Source: Blastobasis lacticolella
Lineage: Eukaryota; Arthropoda; Insecta; Lepidoptera; Blastobasidae
DNA: 64,000 nt
Reading direction: 5' to 3'
NCBI GenBank assembly: GCA_905147135.1
Contig: LR990048.1
Coordinates: forward strand, 16,600,563 to 16,664,562
In this document: positions 18,384-63,763 of the stretch, piece after piece
How positions within the stretch are numbered: the first letter of the stretch is position 1
How the letters are laid out: each line of letters opens with the position of its first letter
The notes under the pieces: model-generated
Told to the model about the DNA's origin: nothing
Seen by the model: the letters and a program-made list of their open reading frames with translations, nothing else
The model's database searches: none
Translations under genes and position numbers: made by a program

Positions 18384-21300
18384 GTGAGGCAAATTCATAT
18401 CGCACTGACTTTATTATTTGTGTATTTAATAACTGATTTTGTTTGAAGAAGGATAGGTACACTCTTTGGGTGTAGTCAAAACACTGACTGCAAACGAACG
18501 CGACCGTAGTCAGACTAAGGGCCGATTTTTCAATCCTCAGATAACATTTATCTGTCTAATAAAATAATATACTGCCAAATTAAAACAAACAGTTATCCTT
18601 CACTTATACATGAAGATAGGTACGTTTTTATTTTAGTCGTATAATAACTTATCAGATTGAAATATTTTACCCGAGGATTGAACAATCGGCCCTAAGTCAG
18701 ATACTTTAGTACCGTACTCCAACGTAATTTTGCAGCTAGCTTTAGCTACAGCTGTTCGTTCGGATCGTGCAGTTAACAAATGCAGACATTTCATTCAATC
18801 AATCAGTTATATTGCCGTCCATACTGTTGAACGTAGGCCTCCACCAGAGAGTGCCATCCATCTCAGTCTTAGGCAGTCCATATCAATCCCCTACCCGCCT
18901 ACCTTTCCAAGGTCGTAGACCATCGCGCTACGTTTCAGCCTTTTAGTACCTTTTTCGATAGAAAAAGAAGGATAATACTGTATATGGCGTAAAAAGGAAC
19001 TAATATGCCGCCAAGGAATCTATACTGAATTAAAGACAACTTACGCCCTCCGCACGGTCTTTATTATCGTCGACGCGCGTATGGCTGAAGGCCGCCTATT
19101 TCAAGTATATTCTTATATTCGCCTCCTTCTCGAAGTTATGACGGCCAAGTTGTGTGGTTTGGCCGAGATATACGTTTTCTTGGATAGCGTCGTATCGAGA
19201 GAGCGATTTCGTACTGAAAATAAATTAATTACTAGTCTGCTTACCGCTAATAACTACTGAGTTTTTGCTTACTTATACCTGAATACATCTATGCATGTTT
19301 CCCGTGCAGGTTGGGTTAGGTTACGCATTTACTACTTAAAGCTAATGTATCAGGTAGTAGGACTCGGTCGATCTGAGGAGTCCGCCTACCAGTACCTCCG
19401 CCTTATCTATTTCTGCCGCCAAGCAACAATGCTTGCATTGTCGTGTTCCGGTTTAAAGGATAAAGTAGTCAGCGCAATTACAGGCATGAGGCATTCCATC
19501 TAAGTTCTTACAGTGACAACGCACTAGAGTTTTTGCTTACGGGTCGCCATAGGTTACGCCTAATTATACGTTTTTCCCGTGCAGGTTGGGAGCACAAGCT
19601 TGCTGACAGGTCGTCGCTGCCGCCTGCTTCCGGGGAGGAGAGGAGCAAATCTCAATCCAAACATGTGTTCACACAACCACTCTCTAAGTAAGTTAATATT
19701 TTTATCTGACTAGGTATCCTTGCAGAATTTTATTATTTGCCTATGTAGGAACTAAATGAAAACAAACTCTATAGTAAACTATTCATATTTAAGTTTACAT
19801 TTTTGAAAATTGATGTGTGCAGTCGTTCGAATCCCTAATCTTCTTAGACAAGACCTGCTGTTGTGTTTAGTTAACTATTCTAGAAGCTTGCAATTTTTAT
19901 TTTAAATTGAAACAAATTGTATTTATTTCTGCCAGTCCACCACAGTGTGCATAATTTTGTCAAAAAACATATTTTCTAGAAAAACAATAACGCGACATTG
20001 ATATAAGTGCTGGCAATCTTATGAGAGTTTTGACGAATTCGGGGAAGGTTCCCGCCACCACCAATAGTAATAATACTATTTAGTTGTTATTGTGTTTTAT
20101 AAGACACATTTAGATTTTATATTGCAACTATTAAGATATGTGAGTAGCGGCTTATAAGTCGAGGGTCGCCGAGGGAGAGAGAGCGTACCAAAGTCGCTAG
20201 GTCAGGAGATCAGGTCTTGCTACCCTAGGCGATAGATATATATTAGATAGTATCGTGATACACTGGTTCCCCCAGGGCCGGCGCTGGCGGGGCGGCGGGG
20301 CTCTCGTGGCGCTCGGAGACGGAGGGCTCGTCGGGCAGCTCGGCGCGCTCGCCCGCCGCGAGCTCGCCGCCCTACATGCGGTGGGCACGGTCCCTGCATT
20401 GCCTGCTCGAGGTACGTACACGGATATACACGCACCCATACACACCCACACATCACACACGTGAATAGTCTACCGTTGGACTTGTGCCTCTGTATAGGGC
20501 TTTGCCATATTCTCCACGCTTGGCGGGTTGGAGATCGCAGTGTTTGAAACACAACAGAAAATGCTGCTGCCCATTTTTTGGTCTTAAGACATTAGACGCC
20601 TTTTACGACACCCAGTCTATGGGTAGGTGCAATTCTATTCTACCGGACACCACACGGCATCTCTTATCAATATTCACCGTGCTGGTTTGCTTAGCTGCCC
20701 CGGCAACCTCCATGCTTGCGTTGGGCGCATGTACAGATCAAAACACACCCAACTCACCCGTTATGTCCTATAATCATAGCAAAAGCTCGCTTCTAAAAGG
20801 CCTTGGTCAACCTTGTTTGGCCAACGGTATTAGAAGGCACAGCTAACAAGTGGCCAGCTCGTTGTGGTGTTGATGTACGACCAGCCTCAAAGTACGAAAT
20901 GGTCATCCATTCAGTTCCCGGACTCTGCGAGCGTTGGTTAACCTCGGTTATTAAGCGGGCTACAAAACTGACATCCCTAGTGTCTACAGACCTTCAGTTC
21001 GAGTGTTTCAGTTAAAACCACACATTGAGTTGAGCTTTTACGTGACGCGTCAGAAGATGGAACGAGGGTTTTTTCAATTGTAATCTCTTTTCGTTTGGCA
21101 TAACCTACTTTCAATTCACTCGCTTCTAAGAATCGTTAAGAGAAGGTCAACAATAACAACTGCGCAGATTTTGCTACACACTCACAATTTTAACTGCACT
21201 GTTCGACTGTACAGTCAAGACTGTGCAGTTAAAACCCAAGATGTGTTGCCCGTTTTAGTCACTAGCCTTCCTCAGTAGTTCCTCCCATGTTTAGCTGCAC

Positions 21301-24300
21301 AGTTCTGTATACTCAAGGCTGTGCAGTTAAAACTGAAGGGATGTAGCCCGTTTTTGGTCTCTACCCTTACTCAGTACTTCCTGCAATGTTGCCAGGACGC
21401 GGAGGGCGTCCGGCTGTTCCGCAAGTTCGTGTGCGGCGCGGGCGGGCTGCACGTGGACCGGCTCAACTTCTACTTCGCCGTGCACGGGCTGCGGCAGGAG
21501 AGCGAGCCCGCCAAGATACGGCAGGTCGTGCACGCGATCTACAAGTCAGTATGCAACTAACGTGGTTTTTTTGCGGCAGACAGGCATGCGGGCCACCTGA
21601 TGGTGGGGTGAGCTGAGGTCAGAATTGTTTAGTAATGTGTCGATTCTTGTGTATCGCTCAAAGAGCGGTTGCAGTGCAATGTTTTCTTTTTAACAGATAC
21701 GCGTTTTCTAAGGAAAGTTTGCTCTCGAGAGTTTGACTTTGGGCTTGTTGATTATTTGACTTTCATACATTTGGTTCTTAGTGTATAAAAAGAACTCGGA
21801 TATTACTAAATTATGATCTGTCCAGACTGACTTGTTTTATTTGGTGAACAAAGAATACCCAAAATCACGACTTGCCATATCAATCACGCTACGTACAATA
21901 TGTATAGATGTCTTGAATTATATAAAAAACACATAGAATGTGAATATCAATAAATATAAATACTGCTGCAAATTATCCTTTTAAATACATAATTTCCATA
22001 ACCAAATAAGACAAGTCAGATTGGACAGATTTTACCTCGCCCGGAACGCGTCACTCCCATTTCTGTGTGGCCCGGCCTTTAATGCTGATAGTATCGTAAA
22101 TTCATTCATTGATTCGCGACCGTAGCTAGTGAAATAATATGGTATCTGCCTAACCCTACGGGAAAAAAATTGACTTTATGTATGTATCGTACATTCATAA
22201 TATTCGAATAATGATTCGGCCATAGTCATATTTTCCCTCATCTGTTATACATAAAAAACGTTCATTTTACAAGAGAATAGAACTGAAATAAGAAAAGAAA
22301 TATCCACCTTGGTCCAACTACAGGGTTGCTATTAAGATAATTTACGCTCATCTTTAATTTAATCGAGTTATATATCAAATCAAAGATATTTTTTCCCCTA
22401 TCCAGTAACGGTATATGGTTGCAAAGCCAAAAGTTGGTCTGAACGGTAACATCGTTGAAATTAATTATGTAATTGAATGAAAATGATTTCATGAATGTTC
22501 CCCGGATCTCCTATAACCGTGGCGTTCCCTTTAGGTTCCTGCGCAAGTCCGAGCTAGCGATGCCCGAGCCGCTGAAGCTGCTGGTGAAGCAGAGCCTCAA
22601 GGACGGCGCGCCCATCGAGCGGACCGTCTTCGACCACATGGAGAAAGAGGTATGCTGGCTGCTGACTGCTGGGCCTTATTGCAGGGGAATAAGAGCGATT
22701 TTAGAATTTTGGAGTGTTTGTTCTGTGGTGAAAAAGGTGCCTTGTTAGAATGGAGTTAGGTATGTTGTGGAATGGCTACTAAGTTCTTAGTATGTGGGAA
22801 GAAGAAATGCACATTACAGATATCCAGCACCAAAATGAGCATTGTGATATTATATAGGTGACTTATAATTAATTTTTGGTATTAGAAGTATGTGCTTAAA
22901 ATAACAAACAACTTTTACTATGGCACCAACTTGGAATCCCGAAAAAAATCTCAGCTGTTTCATACAAAATTGAAAAGAAATTCTGCCAGAACCTATAAGA
23001 CAGCTTTTTTTTTCGCGATTTTAGTGTTGGTGCCATGTTAAAAGTTGTATGTTATCACAAGTACTTATGCGCTTATTACACATGCCTAAATTCAGAAGCA
23101 AAAAGCGTGAGAGCAAATCAAATCAAAGTGAGAGCAAAGTAAAGCTCATAGAATAAGGTCCATTTTTGCATCACTAATATTATGTTATAGCGTGTGTCAA
23201 ATAAGAAGAGACTTGGCGGGTCACGTGGTTCGACTTGCGCTGCATACGATTACCTGCGCGAAATCCCCCCCACTGCCATTTGACAAGTCTCTTCTTTCGT
23301 GACACGGGTTATACGTGTTGCTCCGCTTTGCAAAAGCCGTGACACAAAAATGGATCTTATTTAATGTGCAATACATTCCACTTTGATTTGGTCTCCCGCT
23401 TTTTGCTTCTGAATTTAGTAACTGAATTAAGGCAGGCATATGTAATAAGCGCATTACCCCTTGGTATCAATTGTAAGGTATTGTGGTATAAGATTAGTAG
23501 TCATTTTTTCTTGAGTTTATTTACATGACTTAAGCCCTAGTTTGACTTGAATTCGCCCCTCCTTAGGTGACGTTGGCGATAACGGAGTCGACGTACGCGG
23601 CGTTCCTGCGGTCGGACGCGTACGTGTCGTACGTGGGCGCCGCCACGCAGCCGCTGTCCTCGCCCGACGCCTCGCCGCCCGAGCACGCGCCCAAGGTACG
23701 TAGCGTGGTCCGTCCTACAGGCGACGCGTACGTGTCGTACGTGGGCGCCGCCACGCAGCCGCTGTCCTCGCCCGACGCCTCGCCGCCCGAGCACGCGCCC
23801 AAGGTACGTAGCGTGGTCCGTCCTACAGGCGACGCGTACGTGTCGTACGTGGGCGCCGCCACGCAGCCGCTGTCCTCGCCCGACGCCTCGCCGCCCGAGC
23901 ACGCGCCCAAGGTACGTAGCGTGGTCCGTCCTACAGGCGACGCGTACGTGTCGTACGTGGGCGCCGCCACGCAGCCGCTGTCCTCGCCCGACGCCTCGCC
24001 GCCCGAGCACGCGCCCAAGGTACGTAGCGTGGTCCGTCCTACAGGCGACGCGTACGTGTCGTACGTGGGCGCCGCCACGCAGCCGCTGTCCTCGCCCGAC
24101 GCCTCGCCGCCCGAGCACGCGCCCAAGGTACGTAGCGTGGTCCGTCCTACAGGCGACGCGTACGTGTCGTACGTGGGCGCCGCCACGCAGCCGCTGTCCT
24201 CGCCCGACGCCTCTGGATAACTAGTCTGGATGCACGTACATGCCAAGGGCGTGAGTGCATTCGTCATCATAGCCCGTAACAGTCCACTGCAGGAATTAGG

Positions 24301-27300
24301 GCATCTCCCACGAAAGGGGAAGTCATTGCTATAATCTTCACGCTTGGCAGGCGGGTTGAAGATCGCAGTGTCGCAAATATAACAATGGAAAACGCTGCTG
24401 CCCATTTTCTAGTCTATGGCGACTTTAGATATTTTACTTTAAAAACGTAAGTCGCCTTGTCCACCCACGATTGTAAGGGGTTGATGCTGTTTTACTCTGC
24501 TGGGACACCACAGGGCCTTGTGCATAAGTGTATTAAACACTCCAATAAATGTTTCTTTGACTCTACAACAATATTCATGATATTTTGTGCATATTTTGTC
24601 AAAATCAGTTTGCTAAAAGAAGAAAGAATTAGCTGTCCCTTTTGCCCAAAAGACTCGGCCTTAACCACCAGGGTATTTTTAATTAAGCTTGCCAAGCCTC
24701 CTTTTTTGTGAAGGACAGTCATTATTTTTATAAATAAAATGTTTCTCTACCTTTCTTGTACGCGAAAAGAATGAAAACTAACCATCCGCAACACATTTCT
24801 TGTATTCGAACTAAACACGCCTGAAATTGAAACATCCAACATTCCCTGAGATGACCATGAATTGACCACCACTACATTATGCAATCCTCTTCCAGCCGAT
24901 GGGCTACGCGCTAGCCACCCTGCACGAGGGGGAGGAGTTGTCGGTGGGGGGCGCAGGGCCCGCGGGGGGGCCGGGGGTGGGGGCCGCGGGGGGCCCGGCG
25001 CGGCTCACGCACGGCGCGCTGCTGGCCTCGCAGACGCGCCGGCTGCATCACGATATCGCACCGTGAGTATTCATTCTAGCATTCAGCTTAACTATAATGT
25101 ACTGGAAAGTAAAGCGGCAGCGGACTAGTGGCAGCGTGCTTGCGAGACCGATAAAGGGGGGGGGGGGGGTTATGGATGGAACTACATACATTGGGAACTG
25201 GGAACTGGACATGTCACGTCAACGCAACATGCTCGTTAGATGTGCCTCCTAATACCTTTAAGCGAGCTCGATCGAGGTCTTCCGCTGGGTACCCTGAGAC
25301 TGGTTGGGCATTCTCGGGAGCCTATTGGTACCGTATATTATTATTTTGCTAGCCAGCAATAGTGAGACGCCCCGTAATTCTTTCTACACAGTATGAACTG
25401 ATTACTACTTCCATGTTACTGTAATCTTACCCCATACTAATGTATGTGAATGAAGTATGTTCAATGTATCTGAAATATAAACAATGGTGTTTAAAATTAA
25501 ATAGAATGGGAATATACAGCTTTGTGGTCTTTAGTAGTGTAAATTCCACGTTGAACATACTTATACACTGATTCATAGCAATAGCACATCATTTTCTAAA
25601 CATAAAGCTAATTAGTTGAATTATTAGTTAGTTTTAATTATTTTTGTTTAATAGGTAGTTTGTACAAATGTCAGTAGTTTAGTAAACAATATAGAACTGA
25701 TATAATATCCAATGTAGTTACACTAGCTACAACATAGATGTCGCTTATCATTAGAAGTAAATGTGTGACCCCGAGCATTGCATGAGCAAACCCACAGCAC
25801 ATTTAATTTCGCCTTTTCTAATGTTGTTTTTCTTTTTTGTTGTTATTATTATTTGCTCTGTGAGTTTGGGCGCGTTCAGGTACTACGGAAGCACTATATT
25901 TATAATCCCTAAGTTGAGAAATTCTGATATTTTTATTGAGACCTACGACTCCAATGACAACGCACCTGCGGTTCTACATTTCTGTTTCATGAAACAGTGT
26001 GAACCAAATATATTATGGGCGACAGCCACCACTTTCGATCTATAGGCTAATTACATAACGCTGTTGCAAGAAATTATCTGATTTCAATTATTGAAATTGT
26101 TGCTTTTGCGAATTCGTATCATCGATTTCATGGGTTCAGTTGCTAACAAAGTTCCATTGCAATAAACTGGAACTATTAAATCGATTATTCGTAATCCCAA
26201 ACAAACAATTTCAATCATTGAAATCAGAGAATTGTTGCCAACAGAGTTACGTAAGTAGCCTACTGGTGTCTGATTCTGGCGCCCTTTTCGTCACTTTCAC
26301 TTTATTTTTCAATAAACTAACTTGTCACGGAGATCGTAGAGTAGACTGTCCCCGCTGTCCCCTTATGTGCTTCCGTAGTAGCGATCGCCCCCCTCACTCG
26401 CGCCCGTTTGCCCCCATGTGTGTCCCCTGCGCCCGCGCATGCACCGCACGCTCGCTACGCGCCGACGCCGCCGCTGCTCCTGTCTGTCCCACATCACTGC
26501 CTATCCTAAACACTCATGTCTTTGTCCTTATTTCCCGAAATTTTTGTTCTGGTCGATAAATCGATCGTTCGATACGTGAAAAATAATATTCACTATAAAT
26601 CATTACCATTTTCCTTATTTTCTGAAATTTTGCTTTTTGGTCGATAAATCGATCCTTTGATACGTGAAAAATTATATTCACAATTGTATTATTAACATTA
26701 CAATTAAATTGTTTTTACAATTTTTCTTAATTACATTCCAACTTCGATACGCACGAAAAAAAATCGATACATAACTACCTAATTCAATATTTTCATAAAA
26801 TACGAATATTCATATCAATCCATGTATATCCATCGCCATTGCCATTCACTCAAATATGGAATGTAAACTTCTCTATTATTTCTAACTTCTTTTTCAATTC
26901 CATAACTTCTATACAAAACCTCACATCGCCCCGAAACCCCATCACCACCGACACTCCCGCCGCACCCCCCATCCACTACCCGCTGGGCTCCCACGCGCCG
27001 GCCCGCCAGCCACCGCAAGCGGTCGGTGTACAGCGCGCACGTGACGTACGCCGGCTACTGCCCCGCCTCGCGGCAGGACTCGGAGCGCGCCAGCCTCAGC
27101 AGCGGACGCGCCGACAGCGACGCCGTCTCCCTATCTGGGAGCAGTGTGTGAGTATATACCACTTGTATGAAGATACCACAGTGAAATGGCTGTGTCCGCG
27201 GAGTCGAACGCTGATTTAAGGTGGGTAATGCCAATTCCAAGGCCAGAGAGACGGATAAACGTGAAAGAAGTGAACAAGAAAGCAATATGAAATTGCTTGA

Positions 27301-30300
27301 ACTATGGCCCTGACGTGATTTACGACCTCTGTGAGCTCAGTAAAGTTCCTTTAGGCATCGGCGCGGGATTGAGTGTCTGTCGGGAACGACTTGGTCAGAA
27401 TGAAATATATTTATTTATGACCCTATGTGATTGGTGCTAAGTTGAAAGCCTGGAGCATCGTCCTTGGGTTGCGCGTCTGGACTGGACACCTTAATTACCT
27501 GAGTGAGAAGACTGTTACTAGGCAGGCATGCTCCATTTTTAAACTCCTTCCGTCATCTCTTACGTAAGAGAGCTGGCGGTAACGACAGCTAATAGTATTC
27601 CAGTTCGTAAGGTAAGATAACAAATTAGCATTTGCAACTCTTGGCGAGACTGGTCTTATCCACTACCAATAACCAAGTAAGTACTTCTGACATAGTCGTA
27701 GACATCGATGTATATAATTTCTGTTTATTTTCCCTTTTAATTTTGTTCAGTTTTGTAAAGCTGTTTTAAATTTGCACCGCTAATTCATTATAATTTTGCA
27801 TCATAAAATCCCTTGCCCATACTTACAACATTCACGACCATGTTTTATGTTAATGCGTTGGATGTGGTTGTCATTTTGACTTATCAAGCATTGCTTGAAA
27901 ATAGACTTGATGTTTCAGAGATAAATTGTATGCACAAATTCATTTTATTGCCAGAAGCATATCTGGATACCCAATGCCCGGCCGGAATATCTTTCTGTTT
28001 CTTCAATAAAAATGTATCCCATTAAAAAATATAAAATAGATTGCCAAGGCCCACACAATGCTTTTATTGATAAAAAGTCTTTAATATTTGGATCTATAAA
28101 ATGGCCAAACCATATTTCTGATCAAAATGAAGGGTTACTATAGTTTAGCTTTGTAGAGTTACGGACTTAGCTCTTCATGAGATTAGATAACTTTTAAACA
28201 ATGAAACCGTTATGAGCTTGTGAGTTTTTGAAATCTATTTTACTAGAAATGTTTCTGAAGAAATCCATTTTTAGAGATGAAACAGATAGCTGTTTAGCCG
28301 GGTACTGGATATCCAGTCCAGATATTTTCGTTTCAAAATGCGGCAATGCATACTTTTCTAAGTTGGAAAATGTTTGAGAATAAAAATGATATTAGGAATT
28401 CTCCCATTTTGGTTGGTTTTATTTAGGAATTCTGCGTTACCCAGCAATCGTTTCTAATCCGCAATCACCTGATATGCCAAATACTGCATCATGGTCAATG
28501 CCTTGGCCCTCGCGCGATAATAATTGACTCCAAGATTAGGTTCTAATGGGATGATAATGTAAATGGGGATCCGAATTACTTACTGTCTATGGTCCAGGTT
28601 CTAATCTACATCTTCCCTCCCCACAGTGACGGGCTGTCGCTCCGCGGCGGGCGCTCCGGCGAGCGGCGGCGGCGGCTGCCCGGACTCGACAAATACATGA
28701 ACAAGGAACAGGACACCGGCATGGTGAGACTATACAGCGTTGATAGTGTTTTCAGATATAAAAAGGCTAAATAGAGTAGTATAACTTGAAAATTACGTAC
28801 AGTGTTCCCATACGAAATGACAAACAAATTTCAAATTTTGTGAATTTGAAGGTCCGATGCTAAAAATACAGTGTTTGTGTACTTTCAAAGTTTATTATGG
28901 TTGACGATATGACACAAAAATTCAGTGAATCTACTGTAGTTACAGTGCATCTGGAAGCAGTGATAGTATTATTTGAGAATAATTAATTTAGCTTTGTCCC
29001 AGGCGCCAATAGCACAACCATATCACTAAACTAGCACTGGTAAACCTTTACACGTGTTTCGCTATCCAATGAGTATCCTCGGAAAGCCTTTAACTATAAG
29101 TCCCTTACTTTTTATTTATGTATCGTTTATTGGGTTTGCCGTGTACCCGGTGGCCCAATCTACCCAGGCCAAGAAACACGTCAATATCGCTCGCTTTCTC
29201 GCGCCATGTATCTCGTGATAATATAATATCCAATTCAACCAAAAAATTATGAGTTTGTCTGTCAAATAGAAATGCTATAAGTGAGGCTGCAAATTCACGA
29301 AGAGGTGATACACTTTTAGTTTAAGACACTAAGAACAAAACAATTTTAGATATTTCTTGTTGAAACCCTCACTTTCAGCCGAGTACCGGACGCCTTACCA
29401 AGTCATCTAATAGTATAACATATCCACAGGTGATCCCCCGCACGCTACGGCCATCGGAAGCGGGTCGCGTGCTGCCTCCCGCGGAGTTCGCGCCGCTACT
29501 CATCGAGAGACTCGAGAGGTTGCGACGCGACCGCGACGCCAGCGATCGCCTCGACCGGAGACTGGATGAGGTAACACACCCCACATACCATACGGCACTC
29601 ACCATACACCATACCGCACACCGTGCATCAAAGGGTGACTCCACTACCTTTGGTTTATGTCCGAAACTAGAAGCGGAAGATTTCGCCGATGGTTCCCCCT
29701 AGCAAACGTCATCATTTAATAAATAGTGTTATAATTCACATTTTTTCAAATCTCGGTGTAGCTTGAGTTATCCTCTCTATCCTAGCAATACTGCGATAGT
29801 CCGTCCCGCCTAAGGAGTTCGTGCCCTTCAGTTGCAAAATGTTCAAGTTAAGTAAGTCCAATGTCCAAGTACAGTGACCAGAATAATGTCCGGATAAAAT
29901 GTCTGGAAAAGTTGGCAACCCTGGTTCTAAGGTAGCTCTGCCAGGGAGTATGCTCTGCAGCAGAACCACAAACAATCATTATTTTGTTACCATTGAACAT
30001 CATTTTTATAAAATTATAATTGATCTGTATTAATTAAGGTAGTTCGTCGGCAGAGTATGACACAGACATTTTAGTGACTTGAACATTTTGCGCCTAAGGG
30101 GTTCGCGCCTTACTCGTCGAGTAGCTCGAGCAGCTACGGCGCGACCGCGACTAATTATTTTACAATTTGTACCCGTTACTTTCTACATTTTTGTATACAA
30201 AACTTCCACCCTATTTACCCAGTCTCCCACCGAGCTCGCCTTGAATCCTTATGTGTTCCCTCTCCCAGGGCGAGGGCTCGGAGGCGCTGCCGCCGGCGCT

Positions 30301-33300
30301 GGTGGCGGCGGCCATCCGGGACAAGCTGCAGCTCGACGACGACAACGACCAGGACATACTGGGTGAGCTATACCGTGATTTAATGGTCGAAGATCCGGCC
30401 AGAGGAATATGTTCCCTTGTCAGTTATTCAGTAAAATCGTGCATTATTAGGTCGGCACCCCTTAAGTTGCCAGATACCCTGAACGACGGTGGCCACTTTC
30501 CATCAGGTGGACCGTTCGTCCGTGTGTCACCATAGGCAATAAAAAAATTATACGGGGGAATAGGATTCAAATAAGAAAATAATATATTATTATTTTATGA
30601 ATGTTCACCGATATTTCTGTTGAGACCAAGTTTTGCGCAGGCTTCCATTTTTGTTGAATAAGGAAAAAATATTTTTTATTTGACATATAACTCAATTAAA
30701 TAACAGATGAGGGAAATATAGCTATGAAAGGATCTCCTACTATAGGTATCGAGTGATGACGAAGTGGCTGTGTGGTGACCAGTAGAGCTGGCCCGTCTAC
30801 TTGTTTGCCGATTATAGAGTACAGACCTAGTAGTGGAAATAAATTGTTGCCAATATCTGAAATATGGATGGAGAAAAACTTGTCGGCAAACTAAATTGTC
30901 GTTGTGGTCCAAAACGACATGCATTGTTACGTAAACTTGTAAAATTACTGATGAAAAATTAAATAATGAATCACTATGTCAATGTCGAAATTAAAAAACC
31001 ATGACGTGTACTATAAGTGTCATTTATGACATTAGTACATTCGAAACCACCGCAGACTTCATAAAAAAAAGTGATCAGCCTACATTGCACCTCTTCTGCG
31101 TCTATACTCTGTACCACCGATCGCCACAAACCTGCCACTAACCAACAACACCCGTGCCCCCCGCAGACCAGCACGTGTCCCGCGTATGGTCGGAGCGCAC
31201 CCCCGGCGGCTCCCCCCCCGGGCGGCGGCGGCGCCCCCCGCACGCGCACCCCCCCGCCCGCCGCGCGCCCTCCGCGCTGTCGGCGGACTCGGGCCACTAC
31301 GACGCGCCCGAACACCCGCACCACCATCACCATGCGCACTCGCTGGCGCGCAGGTAACTATGCGATTGAAAGACATCACACATCGGCTACGGATGGCTGA
31401 GAATACACATCACCACACACCACCCAGACACTGCCGCACACCACCACCCACACACCACCATCCACACACCATCATCCACACACCACCACTCACTACCACA
31501 CACACCCACTCACTACCACACATCACCACACACCACCACTCACTACCACACACAGAACACACCACCACACACACAACACACCACCACACACACAACACAC
31601 AACACACCACCACACACACAACACACCACCACACACACAACACACCACCACACACACAACACACCACCACACACCACAACACACCACCACACACCACAAC
31701 CCACACATCACCACACACAACAATACGTCCCAACTCAGTCATGTAAACTCGCTATAGTTCAATTGCGATAAGAAAATATACATAGACATATCTTTATTTG
31801 GTCCAATAACACATTAAAAACCTTAAAACTAACAGAATAACAGAAAATAGCGAATCATAGTTTTCTGCCGGCCTTGCCGCTCGACCAATCGGGTCGCAAC
31901 AAATTAGAAAGCTAACTTCACAGTGACCAATTGACGACAGAAAATAATAAAAATGAATACCTCGCCGATTGAAATAAACAGCAAATACTAGACTGACTGC
32001 TAAGCAAATGGATAGCCTAGACTTTATTTTTAATTTGAGACATTTAAGTTGATTTTAATATTTTAATAAACTTTATCTTTTGTGTTTGAACTTTTACTTC
32101 ACTGTGAAAACAAACACCTTTACTCACTATTTTCTTAACGCGAATGAACGCGTGTGTAACGCAGTTAACTAAACGAAGGGCGACACCATGACACAGCTTC
32201 GCAGACGACACACACACTCGCATATACAAACACACGAATACACATCGCCTGAACTCCACCACCATTGTGCTTATACAAATATCACTGCGCGGACATTCGC
32301 TCGAAGATTAACTAACACGCCACACCGACAATCGTCACACCATAACACAATACGTTCCTTAATAGTGCCAAAACCCACCACGGGATGTAGGCCTATACTA
32401 CTATCGGATACTACATCGTCGATCTCCACTCTTCTGGCAGACAATATATCGTACACATTTGCGCGTAGCACCGACCCTACTCTGTGAGCTCTGATACGCT
32501 ATACTCACTCAATACAATACTTACACAATACACACGTCATGACACTAATCTGAGTGGCTCTGACTTACATTCGCGCGTAGATGCACTCCACAAACTGGCA
32601 CATGTCGCATAACATACAGCTAACAATAAAACTGTACATTGAGATATAAACAACATGTTTGATGCTCTCATTTACACAAATCTGTTAATACAATATTGTA
32701 ATATACTTACCAAACCGCACTTAAAACTTGAATTTAAGTAGCCACTATTGTATGTAAATAAATACTCTCTCAACAGCAACGGCTAGTTGGCTTCGTAAAG
32801 CATCTCAGTCGCACAAATACTGAGCTGAAACTAGCCGATGTGCATTACTTACTGCCCACTTCTGTAGATAATTAATTTGAGAACTAGAATTTCAATATTG
32901 ATTGGAACCAATGAAAGCCTAGTCCAGATCTGCCTACACGAGCATAGTGCCTGTAAGCAGCTCTGGGCTACCCGCTACCATATTGGCTGTGTCGATACCC
33001 TCCGAATGTTTGTACCAAACTGTTTTCATTCAAAATTCAGTGTTTACGGACAGGTCTGTCTGGACTAGGCTTGAAGTCGCAATTGTTATTAGGTAACGAC
33101 TAACAGATGCATGATTATTTGTTTGGTTTGCATGTACACTAGCATACTAAGACAACTGTACGCTAATTACGTAACGCTGTTGCTAACAATTCTTTGATTT
33201 CAATGATTGAAATTGTTACTTTTACGATTACATATAATCGATTTAATATTTTCAGTTTATTGCAATGGAATTTTATACGCAACCAATGAAATCGATAATA

Positions 33301-36300
33301 CGAAATCGTAAATGTAACGATTTCAATCATTGAAATCACAGAATTGTTGGCAACAGGGTTACGTAATTAGCCTACTGAGATACGGACACGATTCCACTCG
33401 AGTTACGCTCGCACTTATAAGCTTCAATATTCATTCGTGAAAGTGTTTCACTGTTTTAGTATTGGTTTGCCTGTTTGAAGTGTTTCATTGTGTTACACTA
33501 CACTATAACTAAAACCATGAATATTGTTTTTTTGCTAGCTGCAATTTTTTTTACAAATTTTGCTTTCATATTTTGTTATGTTCATATTTCAAGTAAGAAA
33601 AGAAACTATTGTCTTGAAGCACTTCAATCAAATCCGCCTCTTTTCGTTGTATTGTGTGAGAGTATGGCCGTTTCTGCATATATTATTCGTTTCGCTTGTT
33701 ACCGCAAAAAAAATTATAAATTCAACATTCAATTCGTGTCGAAAAAAACAAGTGAGTAAAGTAATTTTTTGTTGCGAGCGTGGTGACTTTAAATCACAAA
33801 CCAGCAAAATAGTCTTAGAATTGAATGACGAGCGTAGCAAGTGATTCTAATACTACTACGGCTACGTAAATTTCACTTTCCAGATCACAGCTAAATCGCT
33901 TTTACTGCGGGTTTTTCCCACTGATTATTTCACTTTTACTCATACCCTAAGCAAAAAATTAGTTGGCTACGAATATTTATTTATTTACGCACCCAAAGCA
34001 TATTTTTCGTCGTGTACAGTTGAAAAGCTTAATTTCCCCGTCCTATCACATCATTATGAACACGTTCACTCGCCCAACCACTTCCAATTCTGACTCCCCA
34101 TTACCCCACCCAGGTCGATGTCAAAGAAGACGGTAACGGAGCTGACCGACAGCGGGGTGTCGGTGGTGTCGGAGGGCGCCGGCAGCGGGGTGGAGCCGCG
34201 CGTCCTGCTGTGGGTGGCGGCCACCGACCGCCGCGGGATGGGCCGCGACCGCGACCGCGACTCGCGCGGCTCCAGCGCCGACCGCGACGACCGCCGCCGG
34301 GGGAAGGAGCGCCCACGGTATGTATGGCTGCCGGGGACCGCCGCCGACCGCCGCGGGATGGGCCGCGACCGCGACCGCGACTCGCGCGGCTCCAGCGCCG
34401 ACCGCGACGACCGCCGCCGGGGGAAGGAGCGCCCACGGTATGTATGGCTGCCGGGGACCGCCGCCGACCGCCGCGGGATGGGCCGCGACCGCGACCGCGA
34501 CTCGCGCGGCTCCAGCGCCGACCGCGACGACCGCCGCCGGGGGAAGGAGCGCCCACGGTATGTATGGCTGCCGGGGACCGCCGCCGACCGCCGCGGGATG
34601 GGCCGCGACCGCGACCGCGACTCGCGCGGCTCCAGCGCCGACCGCGACGACCGCCGCCGGGGGAAGGAGCGCCCACGGTATGTATGGCTGCCGGGGACCG
34701 CCGCCGACCGCCGCGGGATGGGCCGCGACCGCGACCGCGACTCGCGCGGCTCCAGCGCCGACCGCGACGACCGCCGCCGGGGGAAGGAGCGCCCACGGTA
34801 TGTATGGGTTGCTGAGGATCTGATAGCAGATGCTAGATGGACGGTGTGAGGGACACGCGGTACGGTGTTTTACGACATGGCGTTTCGATATAAACACTAG
34901 GCCGTCGTCGTTAAGACTTGGGTAAATAATAGTCTCGACGTGTGATATCATGTTAGCTACGATATTCTCATCGCCTTTGACGTAATTTATAATGTAGCTG
35001 AAACGACAACACATATCATATATTGGACTCGAGGTATTAAAATTGTCATTATGCATTGAGAAATAATAAATAAATAAATAAAATAAATATAACAGACAAC
35101 AGTATCAAAACTCAGGTAGCGGTATTTCGAGTTGAGTGTTGTTTTTTCGACATTCCCCATAGTTAGTGCCTACCACCTACCTACCAGCTTTAAAATCCCA
35201 GTGTAACAGCTACCAATTTTCTGGTACAGAGTACAGACTATAACAACCGAGCCATTTTAAACTCCCAAATACTTTCAACTTACTAAACCACCACCTCTCC
35301 ACCCACAGCAACAGCGGCAGCAAATCCAGCAGCGCGAGCGGTGGGACCGCCGCGCCCCCCGTCCCCCCCGCCCCCAGTACCACCGACCCCACCGCCACGC
35401 ACACGGTGGTGGTGCTCTCGTTCCTGGACGAGGCGGTGCCGTACCGGCTGCGGGTGCCCGCCGCGCCGCTCACGCTGAGGACCTTTAAGGAGTACCTGCC
35501 CAGGAAGGGGAACTATAGGTGAGTGGATGCCTGCCCAGGAAGGGGAATTATAGGCGAACAGGGGGAGAGGCGATAGAAACTTGTTTGGTAACCACTAAGG
35601 TGACCTTTGCCCTGCAGTGGTACACCTAAGGTTAGTAAAAAAAAAGTGGCAACGAGCAGCCTGCTGGTAAATGGTTACCGTAGGCTATGGACATTTGCGA
35701 TACCAACACGACTAAAATAAGTATACCGAGACAGAAATAGCGTCACGAAAAAGCGTTTGTTTCCTTCTCTCCCAGTATAAGATGACAAAGAAACCAGTAC
35801 CTATTGCGATATAAGTGTATAGTTGTGCTTACCGTGGTAGGGTATCACCAGCTGTAAGAACCATTTCACATCCTTGAAGAACTTTATAATGGGAAAACAT
35901 CAGCAAGGTGCTATTTCCACAATCTAAAGGGCCCCACACATTAACAGTCCGTCTGCAGTCTCTGGTCGTATCGGGCGGCCTGCCGTCCTAGGCCAATAAC
36001 GTCTACACACTAGCACTTTAAGTTAAGAGTATGTGAAAGAAAGATCTATAATAACCGTCCGAATTACCTAGCCGTAGCCAGCCTGCCGTAAATTGATGGA
36101 GTTAGGCATCAAGGCCTATCAATGGGCCTGCCGTAAATTGAAAGATTCGAATGAATGAAGGCATCTAACAAACAAACCCTCCGCAGGTACTTCTTCAAAA
36201 CGGAGTGTGCGGATCTCGACAACACCGTGATCCAGGAGGAGGTGAGCAACGACGGCGACACGCTGCCCATGTTCGAAGGGAAGGTCATGGCGAGAGTCAA

Positions 36301-36313
36301 GAGCGTGGAATGA
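18350..36313 (+). CDS. Axin: Axin, Wnt/beta-catenin destruction-complex scaffold (15 coding exons)
   Basis: Coding exons: 18350-18383, 19585-19687, 20276-20411, 21396-21544, 22535-22649, 23567-23695, 24896-25062, 27010-27147, 28627-28723, 29430-29570, 30269-30362, 31167-31353, 34114-34317, 35309-35518 and 36187-36313. All are bounded by GT/AG and all phases agree, giving 2031 nt or 676 residues. Axin holds APC, GSK3, CK1 and beta-catenin together in the cytoplasm so that beta-catenin is phosphorylated and destroyed. Domains: RGS (about 80-205, ending STYAAFLRSD), GSK3-binding helix (about 357-403, VIPRTLRPSEAGRV then LIERLERLRRDRD), beta-catenin-binding segment (about 428-447, QDILDQHVSRVW), a His/Pro-rich linker, and DIX (about 596-674). 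A PPASGEE run near residue 28 faintly recalls the N-terminal tankyrase-binding segment. Exons are far more GC-rich than the introns. Exons 6 and 13 end in tandem arrays carrying extra donors, so longer isoforms up to 980 residues are possible. The start is the first ATG of the first recognised exon. That frame is also open upstream to the acceptor, so an extra upstream coding exon is not excluded. Confidence 0.95.
18519..18693. mobile_element. MITE with TAA target duplication (Harbinger-like)
   Basis: The ends are GGGCCGATTTTTCAATCCTC and its near-perfect reverse complement, flanked on both sides by TAA (18516-18518 and 18694-18696). This 175-bp foldback lies in Axin intron 1. TAA duplications and short TIRs are typical of PIF/Harbinger MITEs. 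Confidence 0.75.
19585..19687 (+). CDS. Axin: Axin exon 2
   Basis: It is bounded by CCCGTGCAG| and |GTAAGT, phase 1 to phase 2. It encodes the N-terminal tail (starting GWEHKLADRSSLPPASGEE), where vertebrate Axin carries a tankyrase-binding site. The 55-65 bp around its acceptor are duplicated upstream at 19259-19316. Confidence 0.75.
20276..20411 (+). CDS. Axin: Axin exon 3, start of RGS domain
   Basis: It encodes an Ala/Ser-rich tail and then PPYMRWARSLHCLLE, which matches the first RGS helix of Axin (PPYLKWAESLHSLLD in vertebrates). It ends in phase 0 at GAG|GTACGT. Confidence 0.9.
20463..20650 (+). repeat. Interspersed repeat, family A copy 1
   Basis: It shares, in order, CTCCACGCTTGGCGGGTTGG, AGATCGCAGTGTTT, GCTGCTGCCCATTTT and ACGACACCCAG with copies at 24250-24520, 48816-49060 and 49197-49400, and in reverse at 52125-52288. 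It is SINE-sized and lies in Axin intron 3. Confidence 0.6.
21201..21395 (+). repeat. Diverged tandem duplication beside the exon 4 acceptor
   Basis: Segments about 21201-21300 and 21302-21395 share CTGTGCAGTTAAAA, a GTAGCCCGTTTT-like block and CTCAGTA(C/G)TTCCT, spaced about 100 bp apart. The second copy runs straight into the exon 4 acceptor AG at 21394-21395. Confidence 0.6.
21396..21544 (+). CDS. Axin: Axin exon 4, RGS core
   Basis: It encodes DAEGVRLFRKFVCGAGGLHV, then LNFYFAVHGLR, the RGS helices 3-5. Vertebrate Axin has DDQDGISLFRTFLKQEG...LDFWFACTGFR here. It ends in phase 2 at ACAA|GTCAGT. Confidence 0.93.
22535..22649 (+). CDS. Axin: Axin exon 5, RGS
   Basis: It encodes KFLRKSELAMPEPLKLLVKQ, then LKDGAPIERTVFDHMEKEV, corresponding to RGS helices 6-8. 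It is bounded by CCCTTTAG| and |GTATGC, phase 2 to 0. Confidence 0.9.
22901..23055. mobile_element. Foldback MITE
   Basis: The arms ATAACAAACAACTTTTACTA...GGCACCAAC and their near-perfect complement enclose about 95 bp. The inner part (GGCACCAAC...CAGCTGTTTC) recurs in diverged form at 59757-59826. Confidence 0.65.
23067..23454. mobile_element. Long foldback MITE with nested inverted repeats
   Basis: Outer arms ATGCGCTTATTACACATGCC and GGCATATGTAATAAGCGCAT are complementary. Further pairs lie inside: TTCAGAAGCAAAAAGCG with CGCTTTTTGCTTCTGAA, AATAAGGTCCATTTTTG with its complement, and AGAAGAGACTT with AAGTCTCTTCTT. It lies in Axin intron 5, only 112 bp before exon 6. Confidence 0.7.
23567..23695 (+). 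CDS. Axin: Axin exon 6, end of RGS domain (shortest form)
   Basis: It encodes VTLAITESTYAAFLRSDAYV, then a Pro/Ser-rich tail ending PPEHAPK. STYAAFLRSDAYV matches the last RGS helix (NTYPSFLKSDIYL in vertebrates). The first donor is AAG|GTACGT at 23696. Four more identical donors, at 23804, 23912, 24020 and 24128, lie in the tandem array that follows. All are in phase 0 with an open frame, so the true exon end could be any of 23695, 23803, 23911, 24019 or 24127. Confidence 0.9.
23615..24213 (+). repeat. 108-bp perfect tandem array, 5.5 copies, spanning an Axin 5' splice site
   Basis: Copies start at 23615, 23723, 23831, 23939, 24047 and 24155. The last breaks off at 24213, inside the exon part, before a donor. 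Each full unit holds 81 bp of exon 6 end, the donor AAG|GTACGT and 27 bp that reads as intron start. I see no mismatch between copies. Since 108 is 36 codons, the coding frame stays open to a TAA at 24218-24220. The unit peptide begins DAYVSYVGAATQPLSS and ends RSVVRPTG. Confidence 0.95.
24250..24520 (+). repeat. Interspersed repeat, family A copy 2
   Basis: It starts CATCATAGCCCGTAACAGTC and carries CTTCACGCTTGGCAGGCGGG, AGATCGCAGTGT, GCTGCTGCCCATTTT and a GGGTTGATGCTGTT-type end. It is a fuller copy than that at 20463 and lies in Axin intron 6, just after the tandem array. Confidence 0.65.
24896..25062 (+). CDS. Axin: Axin exon 7
   Basis: It encodes PMGYALATLHEGEELSVGG, matching the SGYLPTLNEDEEW segment after RGS in vertebrate Axin. 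A Gly/Pro/Ala-rich spacer follows, then RLTHGALLASQTRRLHHDIA. It ends in phase 2 at CACC|GTGAGT. The Gly-rich part is very GC-rich and could be length-variable. Confidence 0.88.
25948..26036 (-). repeat. Interspersed repeat, family C fragment
   Basis: The reverse complement shows GGTGGCTGTCGCCCATAATA, and GCAGGTGCGTTGTCATTG at the other end. The same blocks occur in + orientation at 45115-45236 and 57487-57620. Confidence 0.55.
26044..26262. mobile_element. MITE, copy 1 of a two-copy family in Axin introns
   Basis: Ends TAGGCTAATTACATAACGCT and the complementary GTTACGTAAGTAGCCTA enclose a second pair, GATTTCAATTATTGAAATTG with CAATTTCAATCATTGAAATC. A close relative lies at 33160-33375 in intron 12. 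Confidence 0.75.
26529..26681 (+). repeat. Two-copy tandem repeat containing CGATAAATCGAT
   Basis: About 66 bp repeated with a spacing of 86-87 bp (26529-26594 and 26615-26681). Both copies contain GGTCGATAAATCGATC and GATACGTGAAAAAT. CGATA-type motifs are bound by DREF and BEAF-32 in flies. Function here is unknown. It lies in Axin intron 7. Confidence 0.65.
27010..27147 (+). CDS. Axin: Axin exon 8
   Basis: It starts after CCCGCCAG|, the only AG that fits after the last in-frame stop and keeps phase 2. It encodes HRKRSVYSAHVTYAGYCPAS, then DSERASLSS...SDAVSLSGSSV, matching the NPYYVNAGYALAPAT...[20 protein letters not shown] stretch of vertebrate Axin. It ends in phase 2 at AGTGT|GTGAGT. 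Confidence 0.85.
28627..28723 (+). CDS. Axin: Axin exon 9
   Basis: It encodes VDGLSLRGGRSGERRRRLPG, continuing the SSVDG...RKQHRREM region. This part lies just before the GSK3-binding segment. It is bounded by CCCCACAG| and ATG|GTGAGA, phase 2 to 0. Confidence 0.85.
29430..29570 (+). CDS. Axin: Axin exon 10, GSK3-binding domain
   Basis: It encodes VIPRTLRPSEAGRVLPPAEF, then LLIERLERLRRDRDASDRLD. It matches the vertebrate GSK3-binding segment (HIPRTYRVPKEVRVEPQKFA, then [20 protein letters not shown]). The exon is in phase 0 at both ends. A decayed copy lies in the next intron at 30090-30152. Confidence 0.93.
30090..30152 (+). pseudogene. Decayed duplicate of Axin exon 10
   Basis: GTTCGCGCC, TACTC, TCGAG, CTCGAG and CGCGACCGCGAC occur in the same order and nearly the same spacing as in exon 10 (29487-29540). 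Translation recalls the exon (LEQLRRDRD against LERLRRDRD) but contains stops. A shorter related piece (GCCTAAGGAGTTCGTGCC) is at about 29808-29828. Confidence 0.6.
30269..30362 (+). CDS. Axin: Axin exon 11
   Basis: It encodes GEGSEALPPALVAAAIRDKL, then QLDDDNDQDIL, leading into the beta-catenin-binding motif. It is bounded by CTCCCAG| and CTGG|GTGAGC, phase 0 to 1. Confidence 0.85.
30450..30550 (+). repeat. Interspersed repeat, family B copy
   Basis: GGCCACTTTCCATCAGGTGG followed by a CCGTTCGTCCG stretch and an A-rich end. Related copies lie at 46515-46630 and 58028-58150. It lies in Axin intron 11. Confidence 0.55.
31167..31353 (+). CDS. Axin: Axin exon 12, beta-catenin-binding region
   Basis: It encodes DQHVSRVWSERTPGGSP, matching the DEHVQRVLRTPGRQSPGP segment that binds beta-catenin/Armadillo. 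Arg/Pro-rich sequence, LSADSGHYD and a His run (HPHHHHHAHS) follow, as in the HHHRHVHHHVHH stretch of vertebrate Axin. It ends in phase 2 at CGCAG|GTAACT. Confidence 0.9.
31400..31722 (+). repeat. CA/CAC-rich minisatellite in Axin intron 12
   Basis: About 320 bp of almost pure A and C on this strand, made of CACACCACCACACACACAA-like units of about 19 bp that shorten and drift. Long frames on both strands here are low-complexity by-products. Confidence 0.9.
31723..34113. other. Remainder of Axin intron 12
   Basis: Apart from the MITE at 33160-33375 I see no feature. A frame at 33475-33759 has a hydrophobic start but no known similarity, and I do not call it a gene. Confidence 0.4.
33160..33375. 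mobile_element. MITE, copy 2 of the family at 26044
   Basis: CGCTAATTACGTAACGCTGT at the left end and GTTACGTAATTAGCCTAC at the right are inverted repeats. The inner GATTTCAATGATTGAAATTG pair is also shared with the first copy. TA-rich ends suggest a DNA-transposon MITE. Confidence 0.75.
34114..34317 (+). CDS. Axin: Axin exon 13 (shortest form)
   Basis: It encodes RSMSKKTVTELTDSGVSVVS, then a linker rich in Arg, Asp and Gly (GRDRDRDSRG, DDRRRGKERP). The first donor is CACG|GTATGT at 34318, phase 2. Identical donors at 34438, 34558, 34678 and 34798 lie in the tandem array that follows, all in the same phase with an open frame. The true exon end could therefore be 34317, 34437, 34557, 34677 or 34797. 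Confidence 0.88.
34224..34807 (+). repeat. 120-bp perfect tandem array, 4.9 copies, spanning an Axin 5' splice site
   Basis: Five copies 120 bp apart end in CCCACG|GTATGT at 34318, 34438, 34558, 34678 and 34798. Copies are identical as far as I can read. The unit is 40 codons, beginning DRRGMGRDRDRDSRG and ending RYVWLPGTAA, and the frame is open to a TGA at 34847-34849. Each unit holds exon end, donor and the first intron bases joined back to the exon. Confidence 0.95.
35309..35518 (+). CDS. Axin: Axin exon 14, start of DIX domain
   Basis: A Ser/Gly then Pro-rich linker leads to HTVVVLSFLDEAVPYRLRVP, then LTLRTFKEYLPRKGNYR, the first half of the DIX polymerisation domain (vertebrate: [20 protein letters not shown]). 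It ends in phase 2 at CTATAG|GTGAGT. Confidence 0.95.
35495..35558 (+). repeat. 35-bp tandem duplication across the exon 14 donor
   Basis: CCTGCCCAGGAAGGGGAACT (from 35495) recurs from 35530 as CCTGCCCAGGAAGGGGAATT. The match runs on through TATAG and the donor. The second copy has GC instead of GT at the splice site, so it is a degraded donor. Confidence 0.85.
35637..35705 (+). repeat. Interspersed repeat, family D fragment
   Basis: GTGGCAACGAGCAGCCTGCT, then GGTTACCGTAGGCTATGGAC and ATTTGCGATACCA. It is related to 40597-40760 and 55306-55500 and lies in Axin intron 14. Confidence 0.55.
36187..36313 (+). CDS. Axin: Axin exon 15, end of DIX domain and stop
   Basis: It encodes YFFKTECADLDNTVIQEEVS, then LPMFEGKVMARVKSVE and TGA at 36311-36313. 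It matches the DIX C-terminal half (YYFKKVSDEFDCGVVFEEV...LPVFEEKIIGKVEKVD). Confidence 0.95.
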
Positions 36314-63164: not shown

Positions 63165-63310
63165 ATTGTCGATGCAAGTCGCTGATGATTCTGTGCATCG
63201 TGTCGGCTCTAAAAATACATAATTAAGATTAAAACTACGAAATAAGCTTATTATTCTCTTACTAAACGTTGTTTTTTCTAGTAAATTAACATTAAAGTCT
63301 CCACAAACGA

Positions 63311-63763
63311 TTACCTTTTTTTACACGTACAAAGTCTTTCTAAAACTTGTTCCATAGTTTTTTCATAAATCTCATAGTTTTCATTGTATGGTGGCCTATA
63401 CACACAAAGTATGATGCACTTTTCTAGCTCCACGCAGGATAACTCAATCTTATGTTCAACTGAGAGGCCAGAAACATCTTTCCGGTCTTTCGATTTAATA
63501 TTTTGCCGTACTGCAATTAATGAACCACCACGGGAAATAGATTTCCGATTAAAACAACTAATTATATTATAGTTAAATAAATTAAATGACATGTCAGATT
63601 CCCTCAGCCAGTGCTCAGTTAAACATAAAACTTCTACAGGAGTTTTCTTTAAATATAATTCTATTTCATGTTCTTTGCCAGAAAAACCTTGTATATTTTG
63701 ATGAATTAATCGTAAACAATTCTTGGGCTTTTCTTTTGTCTTAAAATCTAGTTTAAAGAGCAT
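63311..63763 (-). CDS. LINE endonuclease, N-terminal part (frameshifted from the RT)
   Basis: It encodes RLIHQNIQGFSGKEHEIELY, VLCLTEHWLRESDMSFN, and GGSLIAVRQNIKSK with ELEKCIILCVYRPPYNE. These are the LNIQS, TE and YRPP motifs of apurinic-type endonucleases. The frame ends early in a run of seven A residues (coding strand). The next block, VIVCGDFNVN, continues in another frame, so one base appears lost in the homopolymer, by mutation or by sequencing error. Confidence 0.85.
   Translation of the reverse strand: MLFKLDFKTKEKPKNCLRLIHQNIQGFSGKEHEIELYLKKTPVEVLCLTEHWLRESDMSFNLFNYNIISCFNRKSISRGGSLIAVRQNIKSKDRKDVSGLSVEHKIELSCVELEKCIILCVYRPPYNENYEIYEKTMEQVLERLCTCKKR

What the first reader, a model, noticed from the sequence alone, without database searches (positions are those of the whole stretch)
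23615..24213. Axin exon 6 end and its splice donor amplified five times in frame (108-bp array)
Seen: perfect 108-bp units, each with exon end, an intact AAG|GTACGT donor and 27 bp of former intron. The frame stays open through all of them, and every donor is phase 0. Choosing donor 1 to 5 gives Axin with 0 to 4 extra copies of a 36-residue unit directly after the last RGS helix, and each unit repeats part of that helix (DAYVSYV). Failing to splice gives a stop at 24218. Inference: a 'splice-donor minisatellite' that could tune isoform length without ever shifting frame. The sixth copy stops before its donor, which is unusual for simple slippage.
Basis: partly seen in the sequence, partly recalled or inferred. 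Interest (0 to 1): 0.88.

Follow-up and report, generated by a model that had tools for sequence, protein, structure and literature searches.

The report
Repeated splice donors at exon ends
In the Axin gene of a moth or butterfly the end of a coding exon, with its splicing signal, is copied head to tail five times; the same build recurs at a second Axin exon, at two other genes of the genome and in predicted Axins of three other moths, so it looks like a recurring local mutation that splicing tolerates rather than a device for tuning one protein.

Summary
In detail: five identical 108-bp units plus a 59-nt partial copy, each full unit holding the end of an Axin exon, an AAG|GTACGT donor and 27 nt of intron. 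It is not unique. A second array (34220-34807, 120 bp, five donors) sits at another Axin exon, and a two-copy version at a third. Looking around 40 other exons of the same genome I found two more: 121 bp x 8.2 and 157 bp x 9.1. Predicted Axins of three of 49 named lepidopteran species repeat the 3' end of other Axin exons. All seven cases with three or more copies are on the donor side.

Known unit lengths are 108, 120, 121, 157, 103 and 119 bp: frame is kept no more often than chance. In the 121-bp array using any later donor brings in a stop codon; in the 157-bp array the later copies lack the acceptor AG. Best reading: exon-end duplications, amplified and homogenised, tolerated because copy 1 keeps exon and donor intact while later copies leave with the intron. 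Frame-preserving isoform tuning is not excluded for Axin (no RNA was available) but is unlikely. The kind is known from human genes; its recurrence in Lepidoptera is the surprise.

The parts
23567..23695 (+). Axin coding exon Ed (sixth), last RGS helix; true exon, holds copy 1 of the array
   Evidence: gene model with open spliced frame; PDB Axin RGS match
23615..24213 (+). array A1: 5 identical 108-bp units (81 nt exon + 27 nt intron) + 59-nt partial copy
   Evidence: TRF, copy comparison
23696..23701 (+). donor 1 GTACGT, repeated identically at 23804, 23912, 24020, 24128
   Evidence: same U1 duplex energy for all five, -5.9 kcal/mol
24155..24213 (+). partial sixth copy without donor
24218..24220 (+). 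first in-frame stop if the intron is retained
24260..24512 (+). interspersed repeat just downstream of A1 (similar stretches at 48815-49056, 20502-20584, 49203-49301, 52256-52300)
   Evidence: self-BLAST
24896..25062 (+). next Axin exon (acceptor AG ends at 24895)
34114..34317 (+). Axin exon Ej, before the DIX domain; true exon, holds copy 1 of array A2
   Evidence: DIX domain in the next exon
34220..34807 (+). array A2: 120-bp unit (94 nt exon + 10 nt intron + 16 nt filler), 4.9 copies, donors ACG|GTATGT at 34318, 34438, 34558, 34678, 34798
35495..35553 (+). two-copy spaced duplication of the last 24 nt of exon Ek (copy at 35530-35553, 11-nt spacer, 1 mismatch)
   Evidence: Smith-Waterman score 43, none of 200 dinucleotide shuffles reaches it
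29483..30151 (+). decayed downstream copy of part of exon Eg (29483-29537 copied at 30098-30151, 78% identity)

Best explanation
The array is one member of a recurring class of local, GC-rich minisatellites in this lepidopteran genome: an exon end with its 5' splice site is duplicated a short way into its own intron, often with a spacer or partial copy, then amplified by slippage or unequal exchange between the long identical stretches and kept uniform by gene conversion. Copy 1 remains the true exon with an intact donor, so splicing from donor 1 gives the normal protein and copies 2 to n leave with the intron. Donor-side arrays therefore persist where acceptor-side ones do not. SHOWN: anatomy, recurrence at several loci and species, donor-side position of the amplified arrays, lack of frame conservation, absence of the acceptor AG in later copies of one array. 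INFERRED: order of events, amplification mechanism, selection against acceptor-side arrays, predominant use of donor 1.
For: Two arrays and one two-copy duplication at donors of one gene. Two further arrays near 40 sampled exons: C10, 121 bp, 8 identical copies plus 25 nt, and C3, 157 bp x 9.1. Axin exon ends repeated in predicted proteins of Arctia (period 103 bp, donor CAG|GTATGT inside the unit), Operophtera (119 bp) and Phthorimaea. The true exon holds copy 1 in 4 of 4 arrays of this genome. C10: use of donor 2 or later includes a stop. C3: all eight later full copies have GG where copy 1 has the acceptor AG, keep the donor, and their 6-7 differences from copy 1 are all A/T in copy 1 and G/C in the others, fitting GC-biased homogenisation. 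Decayed downstream copies at L032 and L044 and Axin Ek and Eg suggest an ongoing process. 4 of 15 Axin exons scanned have a downstream copy within 700 bp and none an upstream one; among 379 non-exon windows 2 to 4 independent events; Fisher on 13 exons 1e-5 to 5e-5.
Against: No transcript data, so donor use is unproven. The five A1 donors have equal U1 pairing and similar predicted accessibility (0.42-0.48), so nothing in the sequence forces donor 1. Duplication itself is not donor-specific: of the 40 sampled exons 4 have a downstream copy (L032, L035, L044, L053) and 2 an upstream one spanning the exon start (L037, L062); only the amplified arrays are all donor-side. A 20 x 10-kb sample at fixed places had no such array, which fits arrays that track exons but leaves the genome-wide rate uncertain. 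Only one of the 40 exons carries an amplified array at its own donor. The mechanism of the first duplication is not resolved.
Confidence: 0.68

Rival explanations
1. Isoform-tuning device: the cell chooses among five equal donors and makes Axin with 0 to 4 extra 36-residue units after the RGS domain, and likewise 0 to 4 extra 40-residue units before the DIX domain.
For: Both Axin arrays are multiples of three and open; all donors within an array are identical and similarly accessible.
Against: Sister arrays in this genome and in Arctia and Operophtera are not multiples of three; the C10 array meets a stop past donor 1; four species hit different Axin exons; the A1 copies are identical, so nothing shows selection on the added peptide.
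Confidence: 0.1
2. Assembly or library artefact: GC-rich exon ends were multiplied during amplification or assembly and are single copy in the animal.
For: Copies are perfectly identical in A1 and C10; arrays sit in GC-rich stretches (unit GC 0.73 and 0.80), which are hard to sequence; reads were not available.
Against: In C3 copy 1 differs from copies 2-9 at 6-7 sites, and copy 6 shares one of copy 1's letters; decayed duplications of the same build exist; the class is seen in other species whose published assemblies used other technology (Operophtera: Illumina, error correction from ALLPATHS-LG and a Celera assembly, passages of PMC4558862; Arctia: PacBio CLR trio binning, passages of PMC7433188; that the proteins come from exactly those assemblies is presumed from the species names).
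Confidence: 0.1
3. Intron or exon gain in progress: each A1 unit boundary is a proto-splice site (AAG|GT), so units may be removed as 108-nt introns or spliced in as new exons.
For: Tandem duplication of AG|GT segments is a proposed route to new introns (passages of PMC2891723); the intron part of the unit ends in an AG in A1 (CTACAG) and in Arctia (TATAG, deduced); the predicted proteins of Arctia, Operophtera and Phthorimaea look as if the predictor spliced across units.
Against: In C3 the later copies lack the acceptor AG; the exonic AAG of A1 lies in a GC-rich stretch without a pyrimidine tract (by eye); predictor splicing is no proof of use.
Confidence: 0.12

Closest known systems
Variable internal tandem repeats at exon-intron boundaries of human genes in segmental duplications (PMC2812944, abstract and passages seen)
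   Same: Minisatellite units at an exon-intron boundary, on average four copies, lineage-specific, can be kept or spliced out.
   Different: There 30-bp units on average in recent multicopy paralogs; here 103-157-bp units with a whole donor, in Axin and two PDZ-domain genes of a lepidopteran, seven of seven arrays of three or more copies on the donor side.
[quoted passage not shown]
   Same: Local duplication of coding sequence with AG|GT; the duplicate can become intron.
   Different: Here an existing donor is duplicated into its own intron and amplified up to nine times; no new intron position is shown.
Tandem alternative 5' splice sites (recalled, no call)
   Same: Several competing donors for one acceptor.
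   Different: Here five to nine identical donors with identical context 108-157 nt apart.
Small tandem duplications at DNA break ends, by Pol alpha-primase or polymerase theta (PMC8355091 and others, seen as search listing with start of abstract; one search found only a reference-list passage)
   Same: Short duplications arising at breaks; A2 and Ek carry a filler or spacer.
   Different: Nothing seen on preference for exon ends; later amplification needs a further step.

Membership tests
Minisatellite / VNTR | head-to-tail units of tens of bp or more with high identity | tested here: met
Minisatellite / VNTR | copy number varies among individuals | not testable with these tools
   one assembly, no reads
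Tandem repeat at an exon-intron boundary (PMC2812944 kind) | unit contains coding sequence, splice site and intron | tested here: met
   for A1 and A2; for C10 and C3 (exon limits there read from sequence and frame)
Tandem repeat at an exon-intron boundary (PMC2812944 kind) | transcripts keep or remove the repeat | not testable with these tools
   no near-identical protein, hence no transcript of this species, headed the lists
Alternative-donor isoform device | frame preserved by every donor | tested here: inconclusive
   met for A1 and A2, not met for C10, C3, Arctia and Operophtera
Alternative-donor isoform device | donors 2-5 used in mRNA | not testable with these tools
   no RNA
Intron gain by tandem duplication | new intron bounded by duplicated AG|GT and spliced out | not testable with these tools
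   AG|GT present, splicing unknown
Axin gene | RGS and DIX domains in one open spliced frame | tested here: met
   open spliced frame; DIX Pfam 38.3 bits (cut-off 22.2) and RGS Pfam 23.1 bits, just under its cut-off of 23.9; Axin RGS structures at E 4e-17; 60-70% identity to named lepidopteran Axins rows that cover 95% or more of the model

The most novel reading that the evidence does not exclude
Lepidopteran genomes carry a large class, perhaps thousands per genome, of splice-donor minisatellites: an exon's last 80-130 nt, its 5' splice site and 10-32 nt of intron amplified 3 to 9 times or more downstream of the true exon. They come from a recurrent exon-end duplication process with a fairly uniform unit (103-157 bp), are filtered so that only donor-side arrays survive amplification, and are homogenised with GC bias. 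They form a natural series of identical competing donors in which the rules of 5' splice-site choice, and the birth of new exons and introns, can be read directly.
Probability: 0.45. Interest if true: 0.85.

Novelty: new variant of a known kind. Interest (0 to 1): 0.74.

Why it matters
If real, exon ends in moths and butterflies are hot spots for repeated amplification of splice donors in ordinary genes, including a core Wnt regulator. That would explain odd repeated proteins in annotations (Arctia Axin, 920 aa), give a natural experiment with five to nine identical donors competing for one acceptor, and expose the first step of intron and exon gain while copies are still near-perfect. It also warns that gene predictors can misread such arrays as protein repeats.

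Tried and rejected
Axin-specific cause: rejected after arrays of the same build appeared at two other genes. Further decayed exon copies in the window: 12 exons were compared with their flanking introns, arrays removed. Eg and Ek stand out on the plus strand; Eg also has a weak minus-strand match (score 26, shuffle maximum 24) and Ee a weak one that 3 of 200 shuffles reach; both left aside. Donor choice from RNA structure: accessibility is 0.42-0.48 in A1 and 0.34-0.57 in A2, no clear preference; the Ej line about a stop used a wrong frame start, and the open frame of A2 (34094-34849) is taken. Left out of the donor-side count of seven: Maniola Axin (25-aa duplication inside an exon), low-complexity repeats of Nymphalis and Vanessa, the two-copy 78-bp repeat at L034 (exon end uncertain), the two-copy or decayed copies at L032, L044, L053, Ek and Eg. 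For Phthorimaea only the repeated exon end is seen in the protein, not the donor; for Operophtera the deduced DNA allows GT but does not prove it. In one search a further row is the Eg copy itself and was not counted. Genome-wide count of triple-donor patterns: not completed. Papers on such repeats in Lepidoptera: listings of searches showed none (22 listed 20 of 46 papers, 23 listed 20 of 113; the others were listed in full); subscription journals are not held. PMC10759296 was opened for passages and gave nothing used here. A GACG near the left end of several units was noticed and not pursued.

Full report
WHAT IS THERE. The window is from a lepidopteran: the spliced model of the gene at 20276-36313 (597 aa, one internal exon and the 5' exons missing) matches named lepidopteran Axins at 60-70% identity in the rows that cover 95% or more of it, and its RGS part aligns with Axin RGS structures 1dk8 and 1emu. 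Array A1 (23615-24213) has five identical 108-bp units and a 59-nt partial copy. Each full unit holds 81 nt of exon, donor AAG|GTACGT and 27 nt of intron.

NOT ALONE IN THE GENE. Of the arrays that Tandem Repeats Finder lists in the 64 kb, two have units over 24 bp, and both are in Axin and span a donor: A1 and A2 (34220-34807, 120-bp unit, five donors ACG|GTATGT, in the exon before the DIX domain). Exon Ek has its last 24 nt repeated once after an 11-nt spacer. Part of exon Eg has a decayed copy (78%) in the next intron. Of 15 Axin exons scanned within 700 bp, 4 have a downstream copy and none an upstream copy (three exon positions approximate). Of 379 non-exon windows of 150 bp, four independent places have a local direct copy, of which one is an interspersed repeat and one a microsatellite; a fifth row is the Eg copy itself. 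Fisher tests on 13 exons give 1e-5 (two events) to 5e-5 (four events). The window was chosen because of A1, so these figures lean upward.

NOT ALONE IN THE ORDER. Among predicted Axins of 49 named lepidopteran species (counted by hand from the rows), three repeat an exon's 3' end, each at a different exon, with exon limits taken from the window's gene: Arctia plantaginis (exon Ei), Operophtera brumata (exon Ef2) and Phthorimaea operculella (exon Ec, three copies). Where the predictor read through the array the DNA period can be recovered: 103 bp in Arctia (99% of positions consistent, local score 85, next best 10), with donor CAG|GTATGT in the unit, and 119 bp in Operophtera (100% consistent, 56 against 8), where the deduced letters after the exon end allow a GT donor. 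Tuta absoluta, close to Phthorimaea, shows a single copy in its predicted protein. Proteins understate the number, because an array spliced from donor 1 is invisible. One search scanned 171 proteins and printed the best self-match of those above a threshold; the other rows are short, low-complexity or mid-exon repeats, and no row outside Lepidoptera shows an exact block like these.

NOT ALONE IN THE GENOME. The assembly is held as G000 (577 Mb, 45 contigs). I fetched 700 bp on each side of 40 exon matches: 32 of 63 PDZ rows and 8 of 27 RhoGEF rows. Rows in open frames of 324 aa or more and rows with stops were not used, nor were most lower-ranked rows; some of the 40 lie near each other and may share a gene. 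Found: C10:11286414-11287406, 121 bp x 8.2, eight identical copies with the donor of the sampled exon (GAG|GTACGC; 89 nt exon, 32 nt intron), ending in a 25-nt partial copy without donor, as in A1; C3:10997880-10999312 (minus strand), 157 bp x 9.1, at another exon about 360 bp upstream of a sampled PDZ exon; a perfect two-copy 78-bp repeat at L034; downstream copies of exon blocks at L032, L044 and L053; upstream copies spanning the exon start at L037 and L062. So of the 40 exons one has an amplified array at its own donor, 4 have a downstream and 2 an upstream copy. A sample of 20 x 10 kb at fixed places (3.00-3.01 Mb of C1 to C20) gave no such array.

HOW IT WORKS. In all four arrays of this genome the true exon holds copy 1 and the extras lie downstream. 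Counting the three other species, seven of seven arrays with three or more copies are at exon 3' ends, although two-copy duplications occur on both sides of exons. Splicing from donor 1 leaves the mRNA unchanged, so a donor-side array is tolerated, while an acceptor-side array would push extra coding pieces into the mRNA (inference). Two arrays speak against use of later copies: in C10 the frame meets a stop in the first intron piece, and in C3, whose unit spans the whole exon, the eight later full copies have GG where copy 1 has the acceptor AG, while all keep the donor. The 6-7 differences between copy 1 and later copies in C3 are all A/T in copy 1 and G/C in the others, which fits GC-biased gene conversion homogenising the later copies. 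Partial last copies (A1, C10) and filler (A2) point to a spaced first duplication, possibly at a break, followed by amplification over the long identical stretch.

FRAME. Known unit lengths of arrays with three or more copies are 108, 120, 121, 157, 103 and 119 bp: two of six are multiples of three. The open frames of A1 and A2 are what chance offers. The five A1 donors are equal in U1 duplex energy (-5.9 kcal/mol; the other Axin donors range from -1.2 to -10.1) and similar in predicted accessibility (0.42-0.48), so mixed use cannot be excluded; it would add 36 residues per unit between the RGS domain and the rest of Axin.

ARTEFACT. Perfect identity in A1 and C10 is what an artefact would give, but C3 has structured differences between copies, decayed copies of the same build exist, and the class appears in species whose published assemblies were made from Illumina reads (PMC4558862, passages) and by PacBio trio binning (PMC7433188, passages). 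Reads were not available.

KNOWN KIND. Minisatellites at exon-intron boundaries are described for human genes in segmental duplications (PMC2812944, passages), and tandem duplication of proto-splice sites as a route to introns (PMC2891723, passages). Recurrent donor-side amplification in Lepidoptera did not appear in the listings of searches, two of which were capped.

Noticed in passing
21181-21390: Decayed tandem duplication (shift 101 bp, 78%) in an Axin intron, ending a few bases before the acceptor of exon Eb.
   Followed up: partly
26522-26699: Decayed tandem duplication (shift 87 bp, 82%) in another Axin intron. In the 1.5-kb self-BLAST every direct local duplication except one between interspersed repeats (48825-49311) lies inside Axin; shorter arrays outside it are.
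   Followed up: no
C3:10997880-10999312 of G000 (L033, L073, L108, L109): The 6-7 differences between copy 1 and copies 2-9 are all A/T in copy 1 and G/C in the others, as if homogenised with GC bias.
   Followed up: partly
31405-31713: CACCA-type microsatellite about 50 bp after the donor of Axin exon Ei, the exon that is amplified in Arctia.
   Followed up: no
23567-24217: The read-through frame of A1 gives weak Pfam matches (DUF6301, PDEase_I_N) with no single stretch passing on its own; they look like chance summed over repeats.
   Followed up: no
60882-63320 (-) and 53421-54392 (+): Reverse transcriptase frames (Pfam RVT_1), the first 813 aa without a stop.
   Followed up: no
43001-44288: Inverted repeat of about 365 bp at 96% around a transposase-like frame at 43503-43838 (mariner-like by recall).
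   Followed up: no
A1, C10, C3 and Operophtera units: Units, or the exon within them, have GACG near their left end; may be chance.
   Followed up: no
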